This document shows, piece by piece, positions 1 through 26,288 of a DNA stretch of 64,000 nucleotides. The notes below the pieces were generated by a model, which was not told where the DNA came from, ran no database searches, and was given only the letters and a program-made list of their open reading frames with translations. The stretch comes from Microcoleus sp. FACHB-831 (lineage in GTDB: Bacteria; Cyanobacteriota; Cyanobacteriia; Cyanobacteriales; FACHB-T130), in the NCBI RefSeq assembly GCF_014695585.1, contig NZ_JACJON010000018.1:1-64000 (forward strand), read 5' to 3'. Position 1 is the stretch's first letter, and every line of letters begins with the position of its first letter. The position numbers and the translations under genes are program-made.

Positions 1-390
1 ATTCCAGAGCATGAGATTGAGATGAGTGCGGTGCGATCGCAAGGGGCAGGGGGACAAAATGTAAATAAGGTGGCGACTGCCATTCACCTGCGCTTTGACA
101 TTGTGGCTTCCTCGCTACCCGAACGCTACAAAGAGCGGCTGTTGAAGCTTTCCGACCAACGCATCACTAAAGAAGGGGTGATTGTCATCAAAGCTCAAGA
201 ACACCGCAGCCAAGAGCAAAACCGAGAAGAGGCATTGCAACGACTGCAAGACTTGATTAAAAGTGCGATCGCAGTCGTCAAACCCCGCAAAAAGAGTAAA
301 CCGACTCGGAGTTCTCAAAGAAAGCGTCTGGATAGCAAAACTAAGCGAAGTCAGATTAAGACGATGCGAGGAAAAATTACAGAAGAATGA
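1..390 (+). CDS. arfB: Peptidyl-tRNA hydrolase ArfB (partial, 5' end outside window)
   Basis: This is a ribosome-rescue factor that hydrolyses peptidyl-tRNA on stalled ribosomes. The frame is open from base 1 ([20 protein letters not shown]), so the ATG at 22 is internal and roughly the first 10-15 residues lie outside the window. The GGQ catalytic motif sits in GAGGQNVNK, followed by the family-typical AIHLRFDI. The C-terminal tail is rich in Lys and Arg ([16 protein letters not shown]), as in ArfB where it enters the mRNA channel. The total length fits ArfB (about 140 aa) and not a full class I release factor. Confidence 0.9.
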
Positions 391-408
391 CAGTGCTGCA
401 TTAAATAT

Positions 409-1653
409 TTAACTCCAATTGCGATCGGCTTCTGGCCGCAATCGTTTAGCCGCGTCAATCACATCTTGCAGTTCTACCGGATCGCTGAACGGGTCAGCAT
501 CAAGTGTCATTACCCGATTGAGTTCTTTCTGCCAGCGTCGCAGTTCTGCAACGTATGCTTCGCAAGGCACCCGCTTCAGATTATCCCCTTCCTCTACCAA
601 ATCGTAAATCCCATTGTGCAGCCACTTTCCGGTATGCCAATCCGGCATATCAACAGCGGGAAATAAACAAATCCCATGCAGATCAATCCCCGCATTCACC
701 GCCGCCATAGCCTCTTCCATTACATCCTTGAGCCACTCATCTCTACCTGCTTCCATCCCGCTGGTTTCGCCAATAATCATCGGCCTGTGATAGCGTTCCC
801 ACACCCACCGCATTAGCTCGCAAAGCGGTTTGATGCGATCGTCGTGGGGTTCGAGTGCCTGATGGGGGCCATGTTCTCGGTATTCCATCTGACCGAAGGA
901 ATAGTGATTTGCGCCAACGATGTCCAGGATTTCCGGGGAACCGCCAAGTTCGGGATGTTCTTTCCCGTAGAGAATATCCCACGCCAAAAACGTATCGACA
1001 TAGGTTTCGTGATGTGCTGCATCGATCTGATCCTGGCGATCGCGCGGTGCGACCACCTGAACTAGGGGATCGATGTGGATCATCCTGGCGGAAGGTTCCA
1101 CTTCTCGAATCGCCTTAACACCAGCGATCGCTGCCTTACACAACGCTAATCGCAAGCGAAAACGGTCTTCTTTTGTGGTTTTATAAGGAGCCACCCAACC
1201 CCACTCGCCGCCGCAGAAGGAGAAAAACGTAATTTCATTAATCGGCGTGAAAAAATAGGGGCCACGCAAGCGGGGAATCACATACTCTGCTGCTGCGCGA
1301 CAGTAATTAGCATAGCGATCGGTAAACTCATTAGTAAATGGATCGAGATCGTCTGGATACCCATAGTGGCAGAGATCCCAAATGGGAACGATCTGCGTTT
1401 GCTGCATCGCCTCAATAATGGGGTCGATGCTAGAGAAGTCGTAGCAGCCATTACGATCGACTAACGGCCAAGGAATCGCTTCCCGTGCCACATCAATCCC
1501 CAGCGATCGCAATATGTTGTAGTCTTCCTGCGCGTGGCGATCGTGCTGTGTCTCTTCAATTAGATTCCGCCGTCCCTTGTCCTTCCAGAGAAATGTCGAA
1601 CACTCAAAGCCAGAGATGAAGAAGGTGGGGAAGATTCCAGGTCGTTGAGCCAT
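409..1653 (-). CDS. GH1-like glycoside hydrolase (beta-glucosidase-type TIM barrel)
   Basis: This 414-aa protein resembles clan A (GH1) glycosidases. The putative acid/base Glu is E140 in TPINEITF, equivalent to the TxNEP motif, and the putative nucleophile is E296 in IIGETSG, equivalent to I/VTENG. Aromatic and acidic residues near WDLCHYGYP (about 92-100) also fit the barrel. It has no signal peptide, so it is probably cytoplasmic. It is slightly shorter than classical GH1 enzymes and the motif spellings are divergent, so the substrate cannot be named; a role in a sugar or glycoside pathway is an inference. It stands alone, convergent with the arfB-like gene 18 bases away. Confidence 0.72.
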   Translation of the reverse strand: MAQRPGIFPTFFISGFECSTFLWKDKGRRNLIEETQHDRHAQEDYNILRSLGIDVAREAIPWPLVDRNGCYDFSSIDPIIEAMQQTQIVPIWDLCHYGYPDDLDPFTNEFTDRYANYCRAAAEYVIPRLRGPYFFTPINEITFFSFCGGEWGWVAPYKTTKEDRFRLRLALCKAAIAGVKAIREVEPSARMIHIDPLVQVVAPRDRQDQIDAAHHETYVDTFLAWDILYGKEHPELGGSPEILDIVGANHYSFGQMEYREHGPHQALEPHDDRIKPLCELMRWVWERYHRPMIIGETSGMEAGRDEWLKDVMEEAMAAVNAGIDLHGICLFPAVDMPDWHTGKWLHNGIYDLVEEGDNLKRVPCEAYVAELRRWQKELNRVMTLDADPFSDPVELQDVIDAAKRLRPEADRNWS

Positions 1654-1844
1654 GCGTTACGCTCTGGTAAATTTATTCGTCATCCTAAGCAATCTTGCTC
1701 ATTTAAGACACTATCCAGCGCGAGATAAATCCATTGATTACCCGATTTCTGATGTTGGGTAGAGTCAGTTACAAAGTCACCTAGCGAATAGACAGCTTGC
1801 CCAGCCTATCGTGTTTTATGCTAGTTTATCGTCTCTTTGAGCTT

Positions 1845-2130
1845 TTAGTAGTGTATTTGTTGAATCTTTTTGCTAGGCTTAATTAAGGTTTTGTTATCCT
1901 GCCGAGAAAGATATTTCCCGACTGGGTATTGCAGTATATTAAAACCGAGAAAATCAAATCCAGGGTCTAACCCAATACGTGCTACCAAAGTATGTACAAG
2001 ACGTATTTTACTCGGTTTGAGTGATAACCCTAATTTCCTAGCTACTCAGCGATGATTTCCTGGCACTGGAGTATAAATTCCAAATAGTCCTGGATGCAGA
2101 AAAACCATCAGTATACCTGATAAAGGTATC
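1845..2130 (-). pseudogene. Decayed group II intron reverse transcriptase/maturase fragment
   Basis: Reading the minus strand gives unmistakable pieces of a group II intron-encoded RT. About 2101-2121 reads RYTDGF, a damaged YADDF catalytic motif. About 1990-2033 reads LGLSLKPSKIRLVHTL. About 1861-1975 reads GFDFLGFNILQYPVGKYLSR ending in LIKPSKK. The pieces lie in different frames: a TAG replaces the expected Trp codon before LG near 2040, and at least one indel separates the YTDG part from the rest. There is no domain X or endonuclease. It occupies the upstream region of the oxygenase-kinase gene and is a dead mobile-element relic. Confidence 0.85.
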
Positions 2131-2153
2131 TCATTAAATCTTGTTTGTTTATT

Positions 2154-3848
2154 ATGAAAGATGTTATGTTGCCCGCACTAGCTTCATCAAATATGCCAAT
2201 TAAAACATCTAAACCAAAATGCACTGTTCATCGTGAAAATCTATCTCATTTGCTTCTACCAGTTTGGCACGATAAAACTACTTCCTCTGAATTTTTAGAG
2301 CCACGATTCCGCTTTTTGATTCCTGGTAGCAATAAAGTTCGTGTTGTAAAGGGACTATTGTCTGCTTTTGAAAGTACAAGCTTGATTCAAGCCATCGAGA
2401 GTTTAGGTTTCAGTACCCCCACTGCCTTTGATAAGTCAGTGCGGGCATGTGAACGCCGTCACACAGTTGATCTGGGTATGAGTGACGCTATCATGGCACG
2501 TTTGAAAAGTTACTTGCCAGAAATTGTACATATAGATGGCGTGCGTTGGAGATTAAAACGCTTCACTCATCATTGGCGATATATTAAGTACTTGCCCAAA
2601 GGTCATTTTGTGCCTCATTATGATGGAGCAAAAATGTTGCGATATCCCACTCCAGCTATTAGTGTTTTTACTGTACAAATTTATTTGAATGATGATTTTA
2701 CGGGTGGAAATACTCGTTTTTATTCTGACTATGAACCTGTCCGATATGCCAGTCATGATATTCCTATTGGGGAAGTTAAAAATTTTAAGCCATCTAGTTC
2801 ACCTACTCATGAAGTAAAACCAGAAACAGGTAGCGTCTTGATCTTCGATCACGTTAACAATGTGCTACACGATGGTGCTGAAGTAAAATCTGGAGTGAAG
2901 TACATTATGAGAGGTGATGTACTGTATGAAGTGTTTGAAGAAGATGTTCCTCAATTACTACATAATGTATCAAATTTAGAGCCTAACCTGTTAAATTGGT
3001 GCCCAGAAACAGCAATTAAATACGGCACTAGGAACCATGTTGGGGAAGTATGGCTATGTGACTGTGCTGATGATGGTCACGGTTCTGGTATTCATCACTG
3101 TGAAGCTTTTTCTTATGCTGATGAATATGTTTCAAAGGAAGATTCCAATGAGGAAAAGAAAAAAGTACGTCCTGCATCCACAGCAGAAGCTCTAAATGGC
3201 TTGCATGATAAGGAATTGCATGATAAAAATGGTCAATCATTGATATACATTCTAATAAGTGGCAAACGAGCATCAGGCAAAGATTACATCACTAATCTGA
3301 TTTACGATTCCTTAATTTCTAAAGGTATTTCAGTTCACCGCGCTGCGCTGGGTCATATCAATAAGCGTTCGTATGCTGCATCAATAGGTATTGATGCTAT
3401 ACGTTTAGAGAACGATCGTGAATTTAAAGAATCTCATCGTATCGCTATGGTCGCTCACCATACAGCACGAAATGCTCAAGATCCAGAAGGGTGTCTAAAG
3501 GAAGTAAAATCCAATGCGAAACAAGCCAATGCCGAGGTATTATTACTGAGTGATATCCGCACACTACAAGACTTACATTGGTTCAAGCAACAGCCTGGTG
3601 AAGTGGTACTGTTACGGATAACGGCATCAGATGAAACCCGCAAGTTAAGAGGATGGAATCCTTGCCAAAGAAAAGATTCCTTGCATACTGAAACTGAACT
3701 TGATAGTTTCTTTAATTGGACAGCCTGTTGGGATAACAGTGATGTTTCTCCAGAAAGAACTCAGCTATTGCATGAATGGATAGAATACACTGTAATTCCT
3801 AGAATTCCATTATCAAAGTTACGATTTGGAGCGGCTTTTCGACCATGA
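2154..3848 (+). CDS. Fusion: prolyl-4-hydroxylase-like 2OG-Fe(II) oxygenase + phosphomevalonate-kinase-like domain
   Basis: The protein has 564 aa from ATG 2154; a TTG at 2145 is an alternative start. The N-terminal half (about 60-260) is a 2-oxoglutarate/Fe(II) dioxygenase. H155 and D157 (HYD) plus H239 (VLHDG) form the iron facial triad, and R253 (IMRGD) is the likely 2OG-binding residue. A Cys/His cluster follows (CDC, then GHGSGIHHC, about 300-320) and could bind metal. The C-terminal half (about 364-560) has the P-loop SGKRASGKD (369-377) and LLSDIRTLQDLHWF, which match animal-type phosphomevalonate kinase (SGKRKSGKD). Cyanobacteria make isoprenoids by the MEP route, so mevalonate phosphate is an unlikely substrate. 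Low GC and no HIP1 sites suggest recent transfer. The real substrates are unknown. Confidence 0.8.
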   Translation: MKDVMLPALASSNMPIKTSKPKCTVHRENLSHLLLPVWHDKTTSSEFLEPRFRFLIPGSNKVRVVKGLLSAFESTSLIQAIESLGFSTPTAFDKSVRACERRHTVDLGMSDAIMARLKSYLPEIVHIDGVRWRLKRFTHHWRYIKYLPKGHFVPHYDGAKMLRYPTPAISVFTVQIYLNDDFTGGNTRFYSDYEPVRYASHDIPIGEVKNFKPSSSPTHEVKPETGSVLIFDHVNNVLHDGAEVKSGVKYIMRGDVLYEVFEEDVPQLLHNVSNLEPNLLNWCPETAIKYGTRNHVGEVWLCDCADDGHGSGIHHCEAFSYADEYVSKEDSNEEKKKVRPASTAEALNGLHDKELHDKNGQSLIYILISGKRASGKDYITNLIYDSLISKGISVHRAALGHINKRSYAASIGIDAIRLENDREFKESHRIAMVAHHTARNAQDPEGCLKEVKSNAKQANAEVLLLSDIRTLQDLHWFKQQPGEVVLLRITASDETRKLRGWNPCQRKDSLHTETELDSFFNWTACWDNSDVSPERTQLLHEWIEYTVIPRIPLSKLRFGAAFRP

Positions 3849-4042
3849 TTACTGCTAGTGGGGCTTAGCCCTCTTCTGTTACTCTCCGAAATAAAATTGA
3901 TGCTCGTAATGTGAAATACTTAGTCTTTGATAAAGACCTGCTTTTGGTTCGGATAATCTGTCCCCTACTCCTTTCCAAGTCATGCAAACCTATTGTTGCC
4001 CCCCAACCAGCCGCGTGAGGCAACTAACCCCTGGAGAAGTCG

Positions 4043-4888
4043 TTAAAGCATTTGTAGAGGAACAGGTTTAGTAGGCGGTGGGAAGGCAGCATCCAGGGCA
4101 GCCAATTCATCAGCACTCAATTTCAAATTCAGGGCAGCATAATTTTGCTCTACATGGTCAATGCGGCTGGATTTGGGAATCACAATTACATTATCTTGAT
4201 GCAACAACCACGCGATCGCCACCTGCGCCGCAGTAACTCCTCGTTCTTGAGCAATTGTCTTAAGTGTCCGATTGTTCAGCAAACGCCCTTGCTCAATTGG
4301 GGAATACGCCATAATTGGGATGCTTCGTTGCCGACACCAGGGCAGTAAATTCCACTCAATTCCCCGTCGCATTAGGTTGTAGAGGACTTGATTGGTTGCG
4401 ATCGCGTTTCCACCCTTTAGTTGGCTGGCTTCCTCCATATCCTCGACATCAAAATTGCTCACCCCATAGCTGCGAATTTTGCCTGCTTGTTGAAGCGTCT
4501 GAAATGCTTCCAGAGTTTCTGCTAATGGCACAGAACCGCGCCAGTGCAATAGGTAAAGGTCAAGATAGTCAGTTTTCAAGCGTTTCAAACTTCGTTCGCA
4601 TGCAGCGATCGCACCTTGCTTGGAGGCGTTGTGCGGATAAACTTTGCTGACTAAGAAGACGGATGCACGACGACTTGCGATCGCGTGGGCGATTACTTCC
4701 TCTGCACCGCCTTCACCATACATTTCAGCAGTGTCAATCAAAGATAAACCCAAATCGAGTCCATGACGCAAGGCATCAATTTCGCTCTGACGATTCCTGG
4801 CATTCTCCCCCATCTGCCAGGTGCCCATACCAAGAGCCGGAATTAATTGTCCAGAAGGTAGTTTAAGAGTTCGCATGGCAGTTTCCAT
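4043..4888 (-). CDS. Aldo/keto reductase
   Basis: This is a 281-aa NADPH-dependent aldo/keto reductase of the bacterial AKR5/YeaE-like type, a cytoplasmic carbonyl reductase of unknown substrate. The full catalytic tetrad is visible: D52 (SLIDTAEMYG), Y57, K82 (LVSKVYP) and H115 (LLHWRG). VIPKSSR near residue 240 is the nucleotide-binding signature. The alternative ATG at 4876 (MRTLKLPSG) gives the more usual family N-terminus. It is monocistronic, with no partner nearby that would reveal its substrate. Confidence 0.9.
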   Translation of the reverse strand: METAMRTLKLPSGQLIPALGMGTWQMGENARNRQSEIDALRHGLDLGLSLIDTAEMYGEGGAEEVIAHAIASRRASVFLVSKVYPHNASKQGAIAACERSLKRLKTDYLDLYLLHWRGSVPLAETLEAFQTLQQAGKIRSYGVSNFDVEDMEEASQLKGGNAIATNQVLYNLMRRGIEWNLLPWCRQRSIPIMAYSPIEQGRLLNNRTLKTIAQERGVTAAQVAIAWLLHQDNVIVIPKSSRIDHVEQNYAALNLKLSADELAALDAAFPPPTKPVPLQML

Positions 4889-5624
4889 CCATTCAAGCTA
4901 TTGTCAAGAGCGTATTTTTGGCTAACACATGGGTATGGCATTAATTGTAGAGAAAACCACTGTTAGAGCGACAGGTGCTTCCGTTGTTTCGGACTAAAGT
5001 TTTTCCCAACCACTACTATAACTACCAGGACTTACGCATCTTTATCACGCGCGATCGCCAACCCGATAAAGTAAGAGACAGGCAATATTGGGGATTTGGG
5101 CGGCTAGTCGCCTCAATATTTGCCGAATGTCGTGCTAGAGGTGCGTGCCGTTCGCGCTCATAATTGAGAAGTTTCGCACAAATTCTCAATCAATTAACTA
5201 TTAATCAAGATTTGAAATTTAATATTTTTCAAAGTTATATCGATTAACTTTACTGGAATAATTGCTAGAATAAGTTGTCAAAAACCAAAAATAGAGATTA
5301 TGCAAAAAAAGAATATCTGCCTAATTTGAAACAACGATCGCGCCATACAAACTAAGGATTAATAATAGAGTTACGGGCACAATTCATAAAAACATGGAGG
5401 CAGTGTAGCGGGCGTCATTTGCTGCATAGTTATTGCTCAATTTGAAAGGCTGACCTTCCCTAAGCTATAAGTTATTTATTACTAATTGGCTGTTTAAGTC
5501 CCAGTAAGCCCTGTAATTTATAAATCGGTTCCGAGCAACAGGGACAAGAAAAAGGCAGCACAAATAAATTTATGTTTAGCTAAAGATATACCGTAAGCGA
5601 TCGCTACCTTCAGATATAAAATAT
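4889..5624. other. Intergenic region, 736 bp, upstream of the TPS exoprotein gene
   Basis: I see no convincing gene here on either strand. The 3' part is strongly AT-rich and probably holds the promoter and leader of the exoprotein operon. An inverted repeat with 8-bp arms (ATTGAGAA / TTCTCAAT, 5163-5190) could form a hairpin but lacks a T-run. Isolated HIP1 sites occur. The stretch GGACTTACGCA (about 5029-5039) resembles ends of some cyanobacterial miniature elements, but no partner end was found. Confidence 0.5.
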
Positions 5625-24038: not shown

Positions 24039-26288
24039 ATGCTACGACTCCCGCAGTTTAATGATGGTGGTTTAAAGCGATTAGGCAAGCAAGGAAGAAG
24101 CATTCTCTCAATGCTGGACGTTCGCTTTCGCAATTTAAAGATCAGCGGCAAACTGAATCTGGGTTTTGGCATACTGGTTGTTCTTACATTTCTGGTTATT
24201 GGACGCAGTTATCTGAGTAGCGTTCAGGCAACTATTACCATTAATAGAACGCGACAAGTAAGGATGCCCGCTGCTCTTATCTCCGCCGATGCTCAAACTA
24301 ACTTGCTGAAGATGGTGTCTGATATGCGGGGTTATTTGGTATCTGGAGAATCTGTGTTTCGCGATCGCTATCAGCAGTCCCGGCAAACCTTTGAAGCAAG
24401 GCTGGCTGAACTAACAAATATTCTCCAGCAACAGCCATCTTCGGACAATCAACGTCGTCTGAGGGAACTCCAGCAAACTTATAAACTATGGGCTGCGCTC
24501 CCCGATCGGCTATTTGCCCTCCACAACAACTTACTTGATAATCAACCAGCGTTGCGAATGTTAGACAAAGACGGGGAGTTTCTCATTTCCACCATCTTGG
24601 TCGAAACCGATCGCATCTTGGACGAACAAGAAGAGCGATCGCCCTCAAATACCAACACCTTACTCCTTAAAGATGTAGTCGAATTTAAAAGCTCGTTTGC
24701 ACTTATGATTTCGCAATTGCGCGGCTATCTGGTGACGCAAGATCCAGAATTTCGATTTGACTATGCGAGCTATTTCAAAACAAACCAAGCTGCTTGGAAG
24801 GCTTTAAATAGCAGACGAAATGCCCTAAGCGCAAGCCAGCAAGCTCGTCTAGACAAAATTGCACAATCGTATCAGCAATTTCAGCCATTGCCTCAGCGCA
24901 TGTTTGAAATTGTGGAAGGCGAACATTATCGAGAAGATTTATTTTTGTTTCGCCAAGAAACGGAACCTTTAACTGAAAAAATGCTGAGCCTGCTAAATGA
25001 AATTGTGGCAAGTCAGCAACATGCACTTACGTCTGAGTTACAAGCTGGAAGTCAAGGATTAGCGACAGGTGAGTGGCAAACCCTTTTAGGAGGACTAATT
25101 GCCTTGGGGGTGAGTATCAGCCTAACTCTACTCCTGCGGCGACAAATTGCCAATTCAATCAATCGCCTCACAACCGTAACTAATCGCATCATAGAAGGCG
25201 ATCTTGATGCCAGAGCTAGCATAGAATCGCGAGATGAAATTGGTATTTTGGCTAAGACGTTTAACCAGATGACAGATTACTTGCAGCGCTCGAAAGAGGA
25301 ATTGGAGGAGTACAGCCGTACCTTAGAGCAAAGAGTCGATGCACGAACCCAGGAATTGCAGGAAAAGAACCAACAATTAGGCGAAACACTTATACATTTA
25401 CAACAAACTCAGGCTCAATTAATCCAAACTGAGAAAATGTCTAGCCTTGGACAACTGGTGGCGGGTGTAGCACATGAAATTAATAATCCTGTAAACTTTA
25501 TTCATGGTAATGTTTTACACGCCAATCAATACGTCCAAGATTTGTGTAAGTTAGTGGAACTTTATCAAACTGAGTATTCTCACCCTAATCGCAAAATTGA
25601 AGACTTTATAAAAGAAATTGATTTAGAGTTTCTGCAAGAAGATTTACCCAAAATATTCACATCCATGCAAGTGGGAACGGAACGCATTCGTGAGATTGTT
25701 CAGTCGCTACGAACTTTCTCTCGTTTAGATGAATCCGAAGTTAAAGAAGTGAATATTCACGAAGGAATTGATAGTACGCTGATGATTTTGCATAATCGCT
25801 TGAAAGCAAAACCCGATCATCCAGAAATTACAATTATTAAAGAGTACAAGAATTTACCTCGGATTGAATGCTATGCAGGACAGCTTAATCAGGTGTTCAT
25901 GAATGTTTTGACAAATGCGATCGATGCTTTGGAGGAAAAGGAAAAAAATAAGAAGCGGGAATTAGAGATTAAAAATGGCTCAAATTCTGAGATTCACTCA
26001 GCTCCCACCATTTGGATTCGCACTGAAGTGCTAGGTACTAATCGCGTTACTATTCGCATTGCAGATAATGGCCCTGGTATGCCAAAAAATGTCCAGCAGC
26101 GGTTGTTCGATCCTTTTTTCACTACAAAGCCTGTCGGCAAAGGTACAGGTCTGGGAATGTCAATTAGCCATCAAATTATCACTGAAAAACACAAAGGTAC
26201 TCTGAGTTGTATTTCTAGTCCTAAAGCAGGAGCTGAGTTTGTGATTGAAATTCCAATTCACCAGCATTGTAATAGCGATCGCATTTAA
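24039..26288 (+). CDS. Membrane histidine kinase with CHASE3-like sensor and HAMP
   Basis: This is a 749-aa sensor kinase. TM1 lies at about 42-62. A periplasmic four-helix-type region follows that looks like two CHASE3-like bundles in series (MRGYLVSGESVFRDRY and LRGYLVTQDPEFRFDY). Then come TM2 (about 350-370), HAMP (about 370-425), a coiled coil, and a HisKA box GVAHEINNP with H479. The HATPase has NAIDAL, DNGPGM and GKGTGLGMS boxes. There is no receiver, so the cognate regulator is elsewhere. The short gap to the TRAP-type binding-protein gene suggests a two-gene operon in which the binding protein could present ligand to this kinase. Confidence 0.9.
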   Translation: MLRLPQFNDGGLKRLGKQGRSILSMLDVRFRNLKISGKLNLGFGILVVLTFLVIGRSYLSSVQATITINRTRQVRMPAALISADAQTNLLKMVSDMRGYLVSGESVFRDRYQQSRQTFEARLAELTNILQQQPSSDNQRRLRELQQTYKLWAALPDRLFALHNNLLDNQPALRMLDKDGEFLISTILVETDRILDEQEERSPSNTNTLLLKDVVEFKSSFALMISQLRGYLVTQDPEFRFDYASYFKTNQAAWKALNSRRNALSASQQARLDKIAQSYQQFQPLPQRMFEIVEGEHYREDLFLFRQETEPLTEKMLSLLNEIVASQQHALTSELQAGSQGLATGEWQTLLGGLIALGVSISLTLLLRRQIANSINRLTTVTNRIIEGDLDARASIESRDEIGILAKTFNQMTDYLQRSKEELEEYSRTLEQRVDARTQELQEKNQQLGETLIHLQQTQAQLIQTEKMSSLGQLVAGVAHEINNPVNFIHGNVLHANQYVQDLCKLVELYQTEYSHPNRKIEDFIKEIDLEFLQEDLPKIFTSMQVGTERIREIVQSLRTFSRLDESEVKEVNIHEGIDSTLMILHNRLKAKPDHPEITIIKEYKNLPRIECYAGQLNQVFMNVLTNAIDALEEKEKNKKRELEIKNGSNSEIHSAPTIWIRTEVLGTNRVTIRIADNGPGMPKNVQQRLFDPFFTTKPVGKGTGLGMSISHQIITEKHKGTLSCISSPKAGAEFVIEIPIHQHCNSDRI

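What the first reader, a model, noticed from the sequence alone, without database searches (positions are those of the whole stretch)
2154..3848. 2OG-Fe(II) oxygenase fused to a phosphomevalonate-kinase-like domain
Seen: HxD...H and Arg of a prolyl-hydroxylase-like dioxygenase, then a C/H-rich motif (CDC, HHC), then SGKRASGKD and LLSDIRTLQDLHWF as in animal phosphomevalonate kinase. Known: cyanobacteria use the MEP pathway, so mevalonate phosphate should not be available. Inference: a bifunctional enzyme that hydroxylates and phosphorylates an unknown small molecule or peptide. The gene lacks HIP1 sites, is AT-rich and sits beside a group II intron relic, so it was probably acquired.
Basis: partly seen in the sequence, partly recalled or inferred. 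Interest (0 to 1): 0.78.

Follow-up and report, generated by a model that had tools for sequence, protein, structure and literature searches.

The report
Acquired hydroxylase–kinase fusion gene, cyanobacterium
A cyanobacterium has picked up a single, apparently intact gene that joins an oxygen-using hydroxylase to a kinase resembling the animal enzyme phosphomevalonate kinase, a pairing not met in the other genomes searched here; what it acts on is unknown.

Summary
Observation confirmed. One open frame (2154-3848, 564 aa) carries a prolyl-4-hydroxylase-like 2OG-Fe(II) oxygenase (PF13640) and a phosphomevalonate-kinase (PMK)-like kinase (PF04275, 3.5e-21), both above cut-off. Structure models agree: P4H Z 18.3, human PMK Z 11.6. 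Nearly all expected catalytic residues are kept. The kinase looks nearer to animal and giant-virus PMK-type proteins than to bacterial or phage relatives, but its branch is long and weakly placed. It lacks two arginines recalled as phosphomevalonate contacts, scores far below the PMK equivalog cut-off, and the host shows no mevalonate-diphosphate decarboxylase: PMK-like, not shown to be a PMK. The gene lies in a 2.3-kb insert missing from four sister genomes and from a second copy of the flanks in the same genome; the insert also holds a decayed group II intron reverse transcriptase. Of 388 sampled genomes of its class, only this one passes PF04275; my searches found no fused or neighbouring split homologue. 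Best reading: a horizontally acquired orphan bifunctional enzyme whose acceptor is probably a phosphorylated small molecule other than phosphomevalonate. Substrate, activity and cooperation of the domains are inference.

The parts
2154..3848 (+). Fusion gene, 564 aa; GC 39.5%, GC3 0.278 (lowest of 30 window ORFs of at least 250 aa)
2325..2945 (+). 2OG-Fe(II) oxygenase domain, P4H-like fold (residues about 58-264); H155, D157, H239 iron ligands, K249 probable 2OG Lys
   Evidence: PF13640; alignments; model matches PBCV-1 prolyl hydroxylase Z 18.3, rmsd 2.8, 159 aligned
2946..3230 (+). Linker of about 95 aa with a Cys/His-rich stretch (C302, C304, H309, H314, H315, C316); no relatives found
   Evidence: pLDDT < 50 over 277-341
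3231..3845 (+). PMK-like P-loop kinase domain (PF04275 at residues 368-480); K371, R372, K376, D377, K404, K425, R429, R469, R488, R496, R499 kept; A373, N440 and T470 stand for human K19, R84 and R111
1738..4033 (.). Insert of about 2.3 kb that carries the gene; about 8 bp stand in its place in relatives, so no simple target duplication seen
   Evidence: 4 of 5 same-family genomes and the second locus of the own genome lack it; the fifth is uninformative
1812..2033 (-). Relic of a group II intron reverse transcriptase with two in-frame stops
   Evidence: 53% identity over 80 columns, E 7e-22 to a Crinalium LtrA; 40 plasmid records by tblastn; the 66-aa piece matches no Pfam family; no Rfam group II RNA hit
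3862..3895 (.). Possible end of an IS701-family element (weak)
   Evidence: 34 bp, 91%, E 4e-3, beside an IS701-family transposase gene in one Planktothrix plasmid; no transposase remnant in the window

Best explanation
A horizontally acquired, intact, single-copy gene encodes a two-domain enzyme. The N-terminal half is a P4H-fold Fe(II)/2-oxoglutarate hydroxylase (His155/Asp157/His239 bind iron, Lys249 probably binds 2OG). The C-terminal half is a P-loop phosphotransferase of the phosphomevalonate/NMP-kinase type that moves the ATP gamma-phosphate to the phosphate of a small acceptor. Because R84 and R111 of human PMK are lost and the host shows no mevalonate-diphosphate decarboxylase, the acceptor is probably not mevalonate 5-phosphate. 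The tether would let hydroxylation and phosphorylation act on one small metabolite or be controlled together. Shown: domains, conserved catalytic residues, single frame, insertion into a site empty in relatives. Inferred: activity, acceptor class, joint action.
For: Both domains above Pfam cut-offs. Folds: P4H Z 18.3; human PMK Z 11.6 and silkworm PMK Z 10.6, next row 9.4. Catalytic residues kept. Open frame P about 1e-17 and similar GC3 in both halves, 0.284 and 0.288. Empty site in 4 of 5 same-family genomes (the fifth lacks one flank) and in the own genome's second locus. PF04275 over cut-off in 1 of 388 class genomes and 1 of 388 order genomes, overlapping samples, each time this genome. 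No mevalonate-diphosphate decarboxylase over cut-off in the own genome.
Against: No homologue of the fusion is known to me that would show selection on it; pattern scans of genome contigs confirmed none of 26 and 77 candidates. The kinase branch is long (2.13 changes per column) and its place with the two animal sequences has only 83/72 support. The kinase model is middling (best of five models pLDDT 58, the others 42-51; residues 138-210 below 50). I recognised no gene beside it that would name a substrate. K19 of the human P-loop is Ala here. The 31% identity to silkworm PMK is low for inferring a substrate.
Confidence: 0.45

Rival explanations
1. The kinase half is a (deoxy)nucleotide kinase of phage dNMP-kinase type, and the oxygenase acts on a base, nucleotide or nucleic acid, so the protein makes or salvages a modified nucleotide.
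For: phrog_139 dNMP kinase matches the kinase half (2.3e-6). Cyanophage PA-SR01 has a related stand-alone kinase annotated as deoxynucleotide monophosphate kinase, one gene away from a DNA polymerase gene, and viral contig L175 has one next to a DNA-polymerase-like gene. The T4 dNMP kinase structure has Z 9.1. Stand-alone PF04275 kinases occur in most of the 165 of 386 phylum genomes that match (own genome included), and none of 9 sampled carriers shows mevalonate-diphosphate decarboxylase over cut-off.
Against: PMK scores higher than dNMP kinase in sequence and fold. PF21448 DNMK is not listed at E <= 1. R18, K48, R130 and R138 are PMK-like, not phage-like. The oxygenase is P4H-like rather than a shown base hydroxylase.
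Confidence: 0.22
2. A recently landed passenger gene with no function in this host, on the way to decay among mobile-element debris.
For: Single genome, insert with a decayed intron RT and possibly an IS end, no recognised partner gene beside it, lowest GC3 of 30 window ORFs.
Against: No stop in 564 codons and the main catalytic residues of both domains are intact.
Confidence: 0.2
3. A true phosphomevalonate kinase kept to use scavenged mevalonate 5-phosphate.
For: Best PDB sequence and structure matches of the kinase are animal PMKs; R110 and most P-loop residues kept.
Against: TIGR01223 equivalog: 76.7 bits against a cut-off of 188.15. R84 and R111 lost. No mevalonate-diphosphate decarboxylase over cut-off.
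Confidence: 0.08
4. Artefact: two neighbouring genes joined by a sequencing or assembly error.
For: Draft assembly with 85 contigs; contig C18 begins inside a repeated gene. TTG codons that could start a separate kinase lie at codons 350, 355 and 363.
Against: In-frame linker with GC3 like that of both halves. No ATG between codons 252 and 432. Both halves lie inside one insert.
Confidence: 0.05

Closest known systems
Animal-type phosphomevalonate kinase (human 3ch4, silkworm 7xnd; PF04275, TIGR01223)
   Same: About 31% identity to silkworm; P-loop SGKRxSGKD, SDIR and R..RG motifs; fold Z 11.6 and 10.6
   Different: Far below the equivalog cut-off; K19->A, R84->N, R111->T; fused to an oxygenase; no mevalonate-diphosphate decarboxylase found in the host
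Terrestrivirus (giant virus) 'phosphomevalonate kinase' A0A3G4ZNZ0
   Same: Best BFVD match of the kinase model, E 2.9e-11, 31% identity over 204 columns, ahead of the second row at 6.4e-7
   Different: 203 aa, so no room for an oxygenase domain; its activity is unknown to me; sequence not fetched
Stand-alone PF04275 kinases of small-genome Cyanobacteriota relatives
   Same: Same Pfam family; K48, K69, R73, R110, R130, R138, R141 kept in the 9 rows aligned
   Different: Q instead of R18 in the P-loop (8 of 8 rows that cover it); 169-239 aa open frames among the printed rows; separate group 93/90
Phage deoxynucleoside monophosphate kinases (phrog_139, PA-SR01)
   Same: P-loop kinase with SD(I/L)R motif; phrog_139 2.3e-6
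   Different: The 4 phage rows lack K17, R18, K48, R130 and R138; long insertion; separate group 100/100
P4H-type 2OG-Fe(II) oxygenases (PBCV-1 vCPH 5c5t, algal P4H, Pseudomonas P4H; PF13640)
   Same: HxD...H, Lys 10 residues after the distal His, beta-helix fold Z 18.3
   Different: 26-33% identity to the stand-alone versions aligned; extra N-terminal 50 aa and the C-terminal Cys/His linker plus kinase

Membership tests
2OG-Fe(II) oxygenase, P4H type (PF13640) | Profile score above curated cut-off | tested here: met
   31.5 bits (cut-off 27), 33.2 for the half alone
2OG-Fe(II) oxygenase, P4H type (PF13640) | HxD...H iron triad and basic 2OG-binding residue | tested here: met
   H155, D157, H239, K249
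2OG-Fe(II) oxygenase, P4H type (PF13640) | Double-stranded beta-helix fold | tested here: met
   Model vs 5c5t Z 18.3, rmsd 2.8, 159 aligned
2OG-Fe(II) oxygenase, P4H type (PF13640) | Hydroxylase activity | not testable with these tools
   Needs an assay
P-mevalo_kinase superfamily (PF04275) | Profile score above curated cut-off | tested here: met
   75.7 bits, cut-off 33.8
P-mevalo_kinase superfamily (PF04275) | PMK-like P-loop kinase fold | tested here: met
   3ch4 Z 11.6, rmsd 4.3, 153 aligned; 7xnd Z 10.6, rmsd 3.8, 140 aligned; model pLDDT only 58
True phosphomevalonate kinase (animal type) | NCBIfam equivalog TIGR01223 cut-off 188.15 bits | tested here: not met
   76.7 bits, 78.6 for the half alone
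True phosphomevalonate kinase (animal type) | Full set of basic active-site residues (numbering and roles recalled) | tested here: not met
   R84->N, R111->T, K19->A; R93 is Lys, as in silkworm; K17, R18, K22, D23, K48, K69, R73, R110, R130, R138, R141 kept
True phosphomevalonate kinase (animal type) | Mevalonate pathway in the host | tested here: not met
   Mevalonate-diphosphate decarboxylase TIGR01240: no match over cut-off in the own genome (best 18.9 bits; cut-off 171.35); other pathway genes not tested
True phosphomevalonate kinase (animal type) | Phosphorylates mevalonate 5-phosphate | not testable with these tools
   Needs an assay
Phage dNMP kinase (PF21448 / phrog_139) | Profile match | tested here: inconclusive
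   phrog_139 2.3e-6, but PF21448 not listed at E <= 1

The most novel reading that the evidence does not exclude
The founding member of a bifunctional enzyme family in which a P4H-type oxygenase and a eukaryote- or giant-virus-type PMK-like kinase act in sequence on one metabolite (hydroxylation plus conversion of a phosphate to a diphosphate), moved from a eukaryote or its virus into a cyanobacterium and kept as an intact gene.
Probability: 0.18. Interest if true: 0.75.

Novelty: new variant of a known kind. Interest (0 to 1): 0.5.

Why it matters
If active, the protein would be an enzyme with a domain pairing not found in the collections searched here, with a kinase of the animal/giant-virus PMK type in a photosynthetic bacterium. 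Its acceptor would show what PMK-like kinases can do outside the mevalonate pathway, a question also raised by the stand-alone PF04275 proteins of many small-genome relatives, 9 of 9 sampled carriers of which show no mevalonate-diphosphate decarboxylase over cut-off.

Tried and rejected
Sequencing-error fusion: no sign of it, though reads were not available. Group II intron carrying the gene as cargo: considered because the RT relic and the gene share one insert; no group II RNA was found by Rfam in the whole window or in 1600-4200 at E <= 5, no intron end was recognised by eye, and the 66-aa RT piece matches no Pfam family; dropped. Defence system: PADLOC gives only a general '2OG' model, labelled CRISPR-associated, at 8.3e-12; not pursued. 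Adjacent split homologues: the kinase half was compared with all frames of at least 50 aa in the 173 loci then held; no oxygenase locus carried a kinase within its stored flanks of up to about 1.5-4 kb. Literature, judged from the listings (titles and starts of abstracts) except where passages are cited: phosphomevalonate kinase with 2-oxoglutarate and cyanobacteria (8 papers listed, none opened), active-site or substrate-binding terms (1 paper each, none), nucleoside monophosphate kinase and gene transfer (1 paper, passages read), Melainabacteria and mevalonate (8 listed, one read in passages), PF04275 (none), giant virus (1 paper), hydroxymethyluracil or hydroxylysine kinase terms (none). 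Nothing seen there describes this fusion. The roles of human PMK residues are therefore recalled, not read. Eukaryotic genomes could not be searched, so the donor is undetermined. No library of predicted cellular structures was on hand.

Full report
What is there. The window (contig C18 of a 6.42-Mb draft genome in 85 contigs) holds an open frame at 2154-3848, 564 aa. Pfam places a 2OG-Fe(II) oxygenase at residues 144-252 and a P-mevalo_kinase domain at 368-480, both above their curated cut-offs. NCBIfam gives the animal PMK model only 76.7 bits against an equivalog cut-off of 188.15. Against PDB sequences the whole protein finds silkworm and human PMK, through its kinase half, at 1.5e-16 and 1.1e-15; the three other rows have E of 0.087 or more, and the oxygenase half alone has no match better than 0.22. 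A shuffle control for the kinase gives 72 bits real against 23.5 for the best of 1000 shuffles.

Folds and residues. AlphaFold2 on the N-terminal 359 residues (12 sequences, mean pLDDT 61; residues 101-270 lie in blocks of 73-94 except 191-210, which are about 50) matches the PBCV-1 prolyl hydroxylase at Z 18.3, rmsd 2.8, 159 aligned. The kinase half (6 sequences, best model mean pLDDT 58, residues 138-210 below 50) matches human PMK at Z 11.6 and silkworm PMK at Z 10.6; the next rows are 9.4 and 9.1, among them T4 dNMP kinase. Foldseek ranks silkworm and human PMK first. Against viral predicted structures the top row is a Terrestrivirus protein named phosphomevalonate kinase, E 2.9e-11, with the second row at 6.4e-7; many rows below are dNMP kinases of phages and giant viruses. 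The iron triad is H155, D157, H239. K249 is invariant in the 10 rows and the 12 rows. In the kinase, K17, R18, K22, D23, K48, K69, R73, R110, R130, R138 and R141 of human PMK are kept, while K19, R84 and R111 are Ala, Asn and Thr (human numbering and roles recalled). A tree of 16 kinases puts the query with the two animal sequences at 83/72, on a long branch of 2.13, so its place is unsure.

Distribution. PF04275 is over its cut-off in 1 of 388 sampled genomes of the class and in 1 of 388 of the order, overlapping samples, each time this genome. One search, run at E <= 1, also listed 74 other genomes with weak matches below the cut-off. In the phylum sample 165 of 386 genomes match, this one included; all the others are small genomes (1.5-2.5 Mb), with open frames of 169-239 aa in the rows printed (the list of places was cut). 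I read these as the non-photosynthetic Gastranaerophilales-like lineage from genome size and number, not from a name. Among 100 relatives searched with the whole protein, 8 have a match at E <= 1e-5, one being the genome itself; the other seven match only within residues 30-276, the oxygenase. In phage records 6 match, 5 by the oxygenase (two of them the same phage) and 1, cyanophage PA-SR01, by the kinase. In plasmids 10 match, all within residues 8-260. Pattern scans of genome contigs found 26 and 77 candidate stretches, none confirmed. Scans of viral contigs with the query kinase, two kinase alignments or the linker gave none (and its repeat 104, 31, 98). The PA-SR01 kinase as query gave 7 loci, and an alignment of query, silkworm and PA-SR01 kinases gave 4, three of them on contigs already found. 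An oxygenase alignment gave 180 confirmed loci, of which 80 were kept. No oxygenase locus carried the kinase within the stored flanks. These pattern scans reach close relatives best, so absence is not proof.

Acquisition. In 4 of 5 same-family genomes the glycoside-hydrolase-like gene and the aldo/keto-reductase-like gene (names from my reading of the sequences) that flank the insert lie 101-102 bp apart; the fifth genome lacks the first gene and says nothing. BLAST places the insert at about 1738-4033, with 8 bp in its place in L069 and L070. The own genome has a second copy of these flanks on contig C58, also without the insert. The insert has GC 39.7% against 44.7% for the window, and the gene has the lowest GC3 of 30 ORFs of at least 250 aa. 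It has no HIP1 site, but about 3.4 are expected, so this alone is weak. Beside the gene lie a minus-strand group II intron RT relic with stops and a 34-bp match to the flank of an IS701-family transposase gene. The latter is weak: E 4e-3 in one record, no transposase remnant, and a single copy of the pattern in the genome. The window's flanks and HIP1 density (95 sites, 0.9 expected by shuffles) show cyanobacterial DNA, so the gene is not on a stray contaminant contig of another kind of organism.

Function. The catalytic residues of both active sites look intact, so an active enzyme is more likely than a wreck, but no relative found shares the fusion and I recognised nothing beside it that names a substrate. 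PMK and NMP kinases phosphorylate a phosphate (recalled), so the acceptor is most likely a phosphate ester. Loss of R84 and R111, the low equivalog score and the lack of mevalonate-diphosphate decarboxylase (no match over cut-off in any of 10 genomes; 7 of 10 had weak matches at E <= 0.01, as had 11 of the 14 control genomes, 2 of them over the cut-off) argue against mevalonate 5-phosphate. The nucleotide rival rests on the phage dNMP-kinase kinship. For the wider family, a paper states that Vampirovibrio lacks two of three mevalonate genes and encodes the non-mevalonate pathway (PMC4451040, passages read). In P. putida a dNMP kinase encoded in a genomic island supplies the thymidylate kinase activity, and 1 of 871 of its relatives in that study was annotated as phosphomevalonate kinase (PMC10653934, passages read).

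Verdict. It is a new combination of two known domain families in one genome, acquired inside a short insert. What it does is open and directly testable by assay.

Noticed in passing
window 1-5000 and L085 6151-11176 (own genome, contig C58): The own genome holds two copies of the ArfB-like / glycoside-hydrolase-like / aldo-keto-reductase-like segment, pieces 82-96% identical. In the C58 copy the similarity of the hydrolase ends near residue 129. Contig C58 ends, and C18 begins, at the same base of the ArfB-like gene, so the repeat probably broke the assembly.
   Followed up: partly
L012 1465-2010 and L038 1471-2007: In 2 of 7 inspected loci of small-genome relatives the stand-alone PF04275 kinase directly follows an rpsA-like gene (my reading), an arrangement recalled for cmk-rpsA; with no mevalonate-diphosphate decarboxylase over cut-off in 9 of 9 sampled carriers, these 'phosphomevalonate kinases' may be NMP kinases.
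   Followed up: partly
L059 3986-4633, L175 727-1371; relatives L060-L066: A group of cyanophage-like contigs carries a PMK/dNMP-kinase-like gene; in L059 (one hypothetical gene between) and L175 (adjacent, my reading) a DNA polymerase gene follows; the neighbours in L060-L066 were not looked at. PA-SR01 annotates its copy as deoxynucleotide monophosphate kinase.
   Followed up: partly
window 25384-25948: This stretch matches many places in all six genomes searched at 66-71% DNA identity (capped at 40 scored candidates a genome), apparently a large paralogous family in this lineage; not identified.
   Followed up: no
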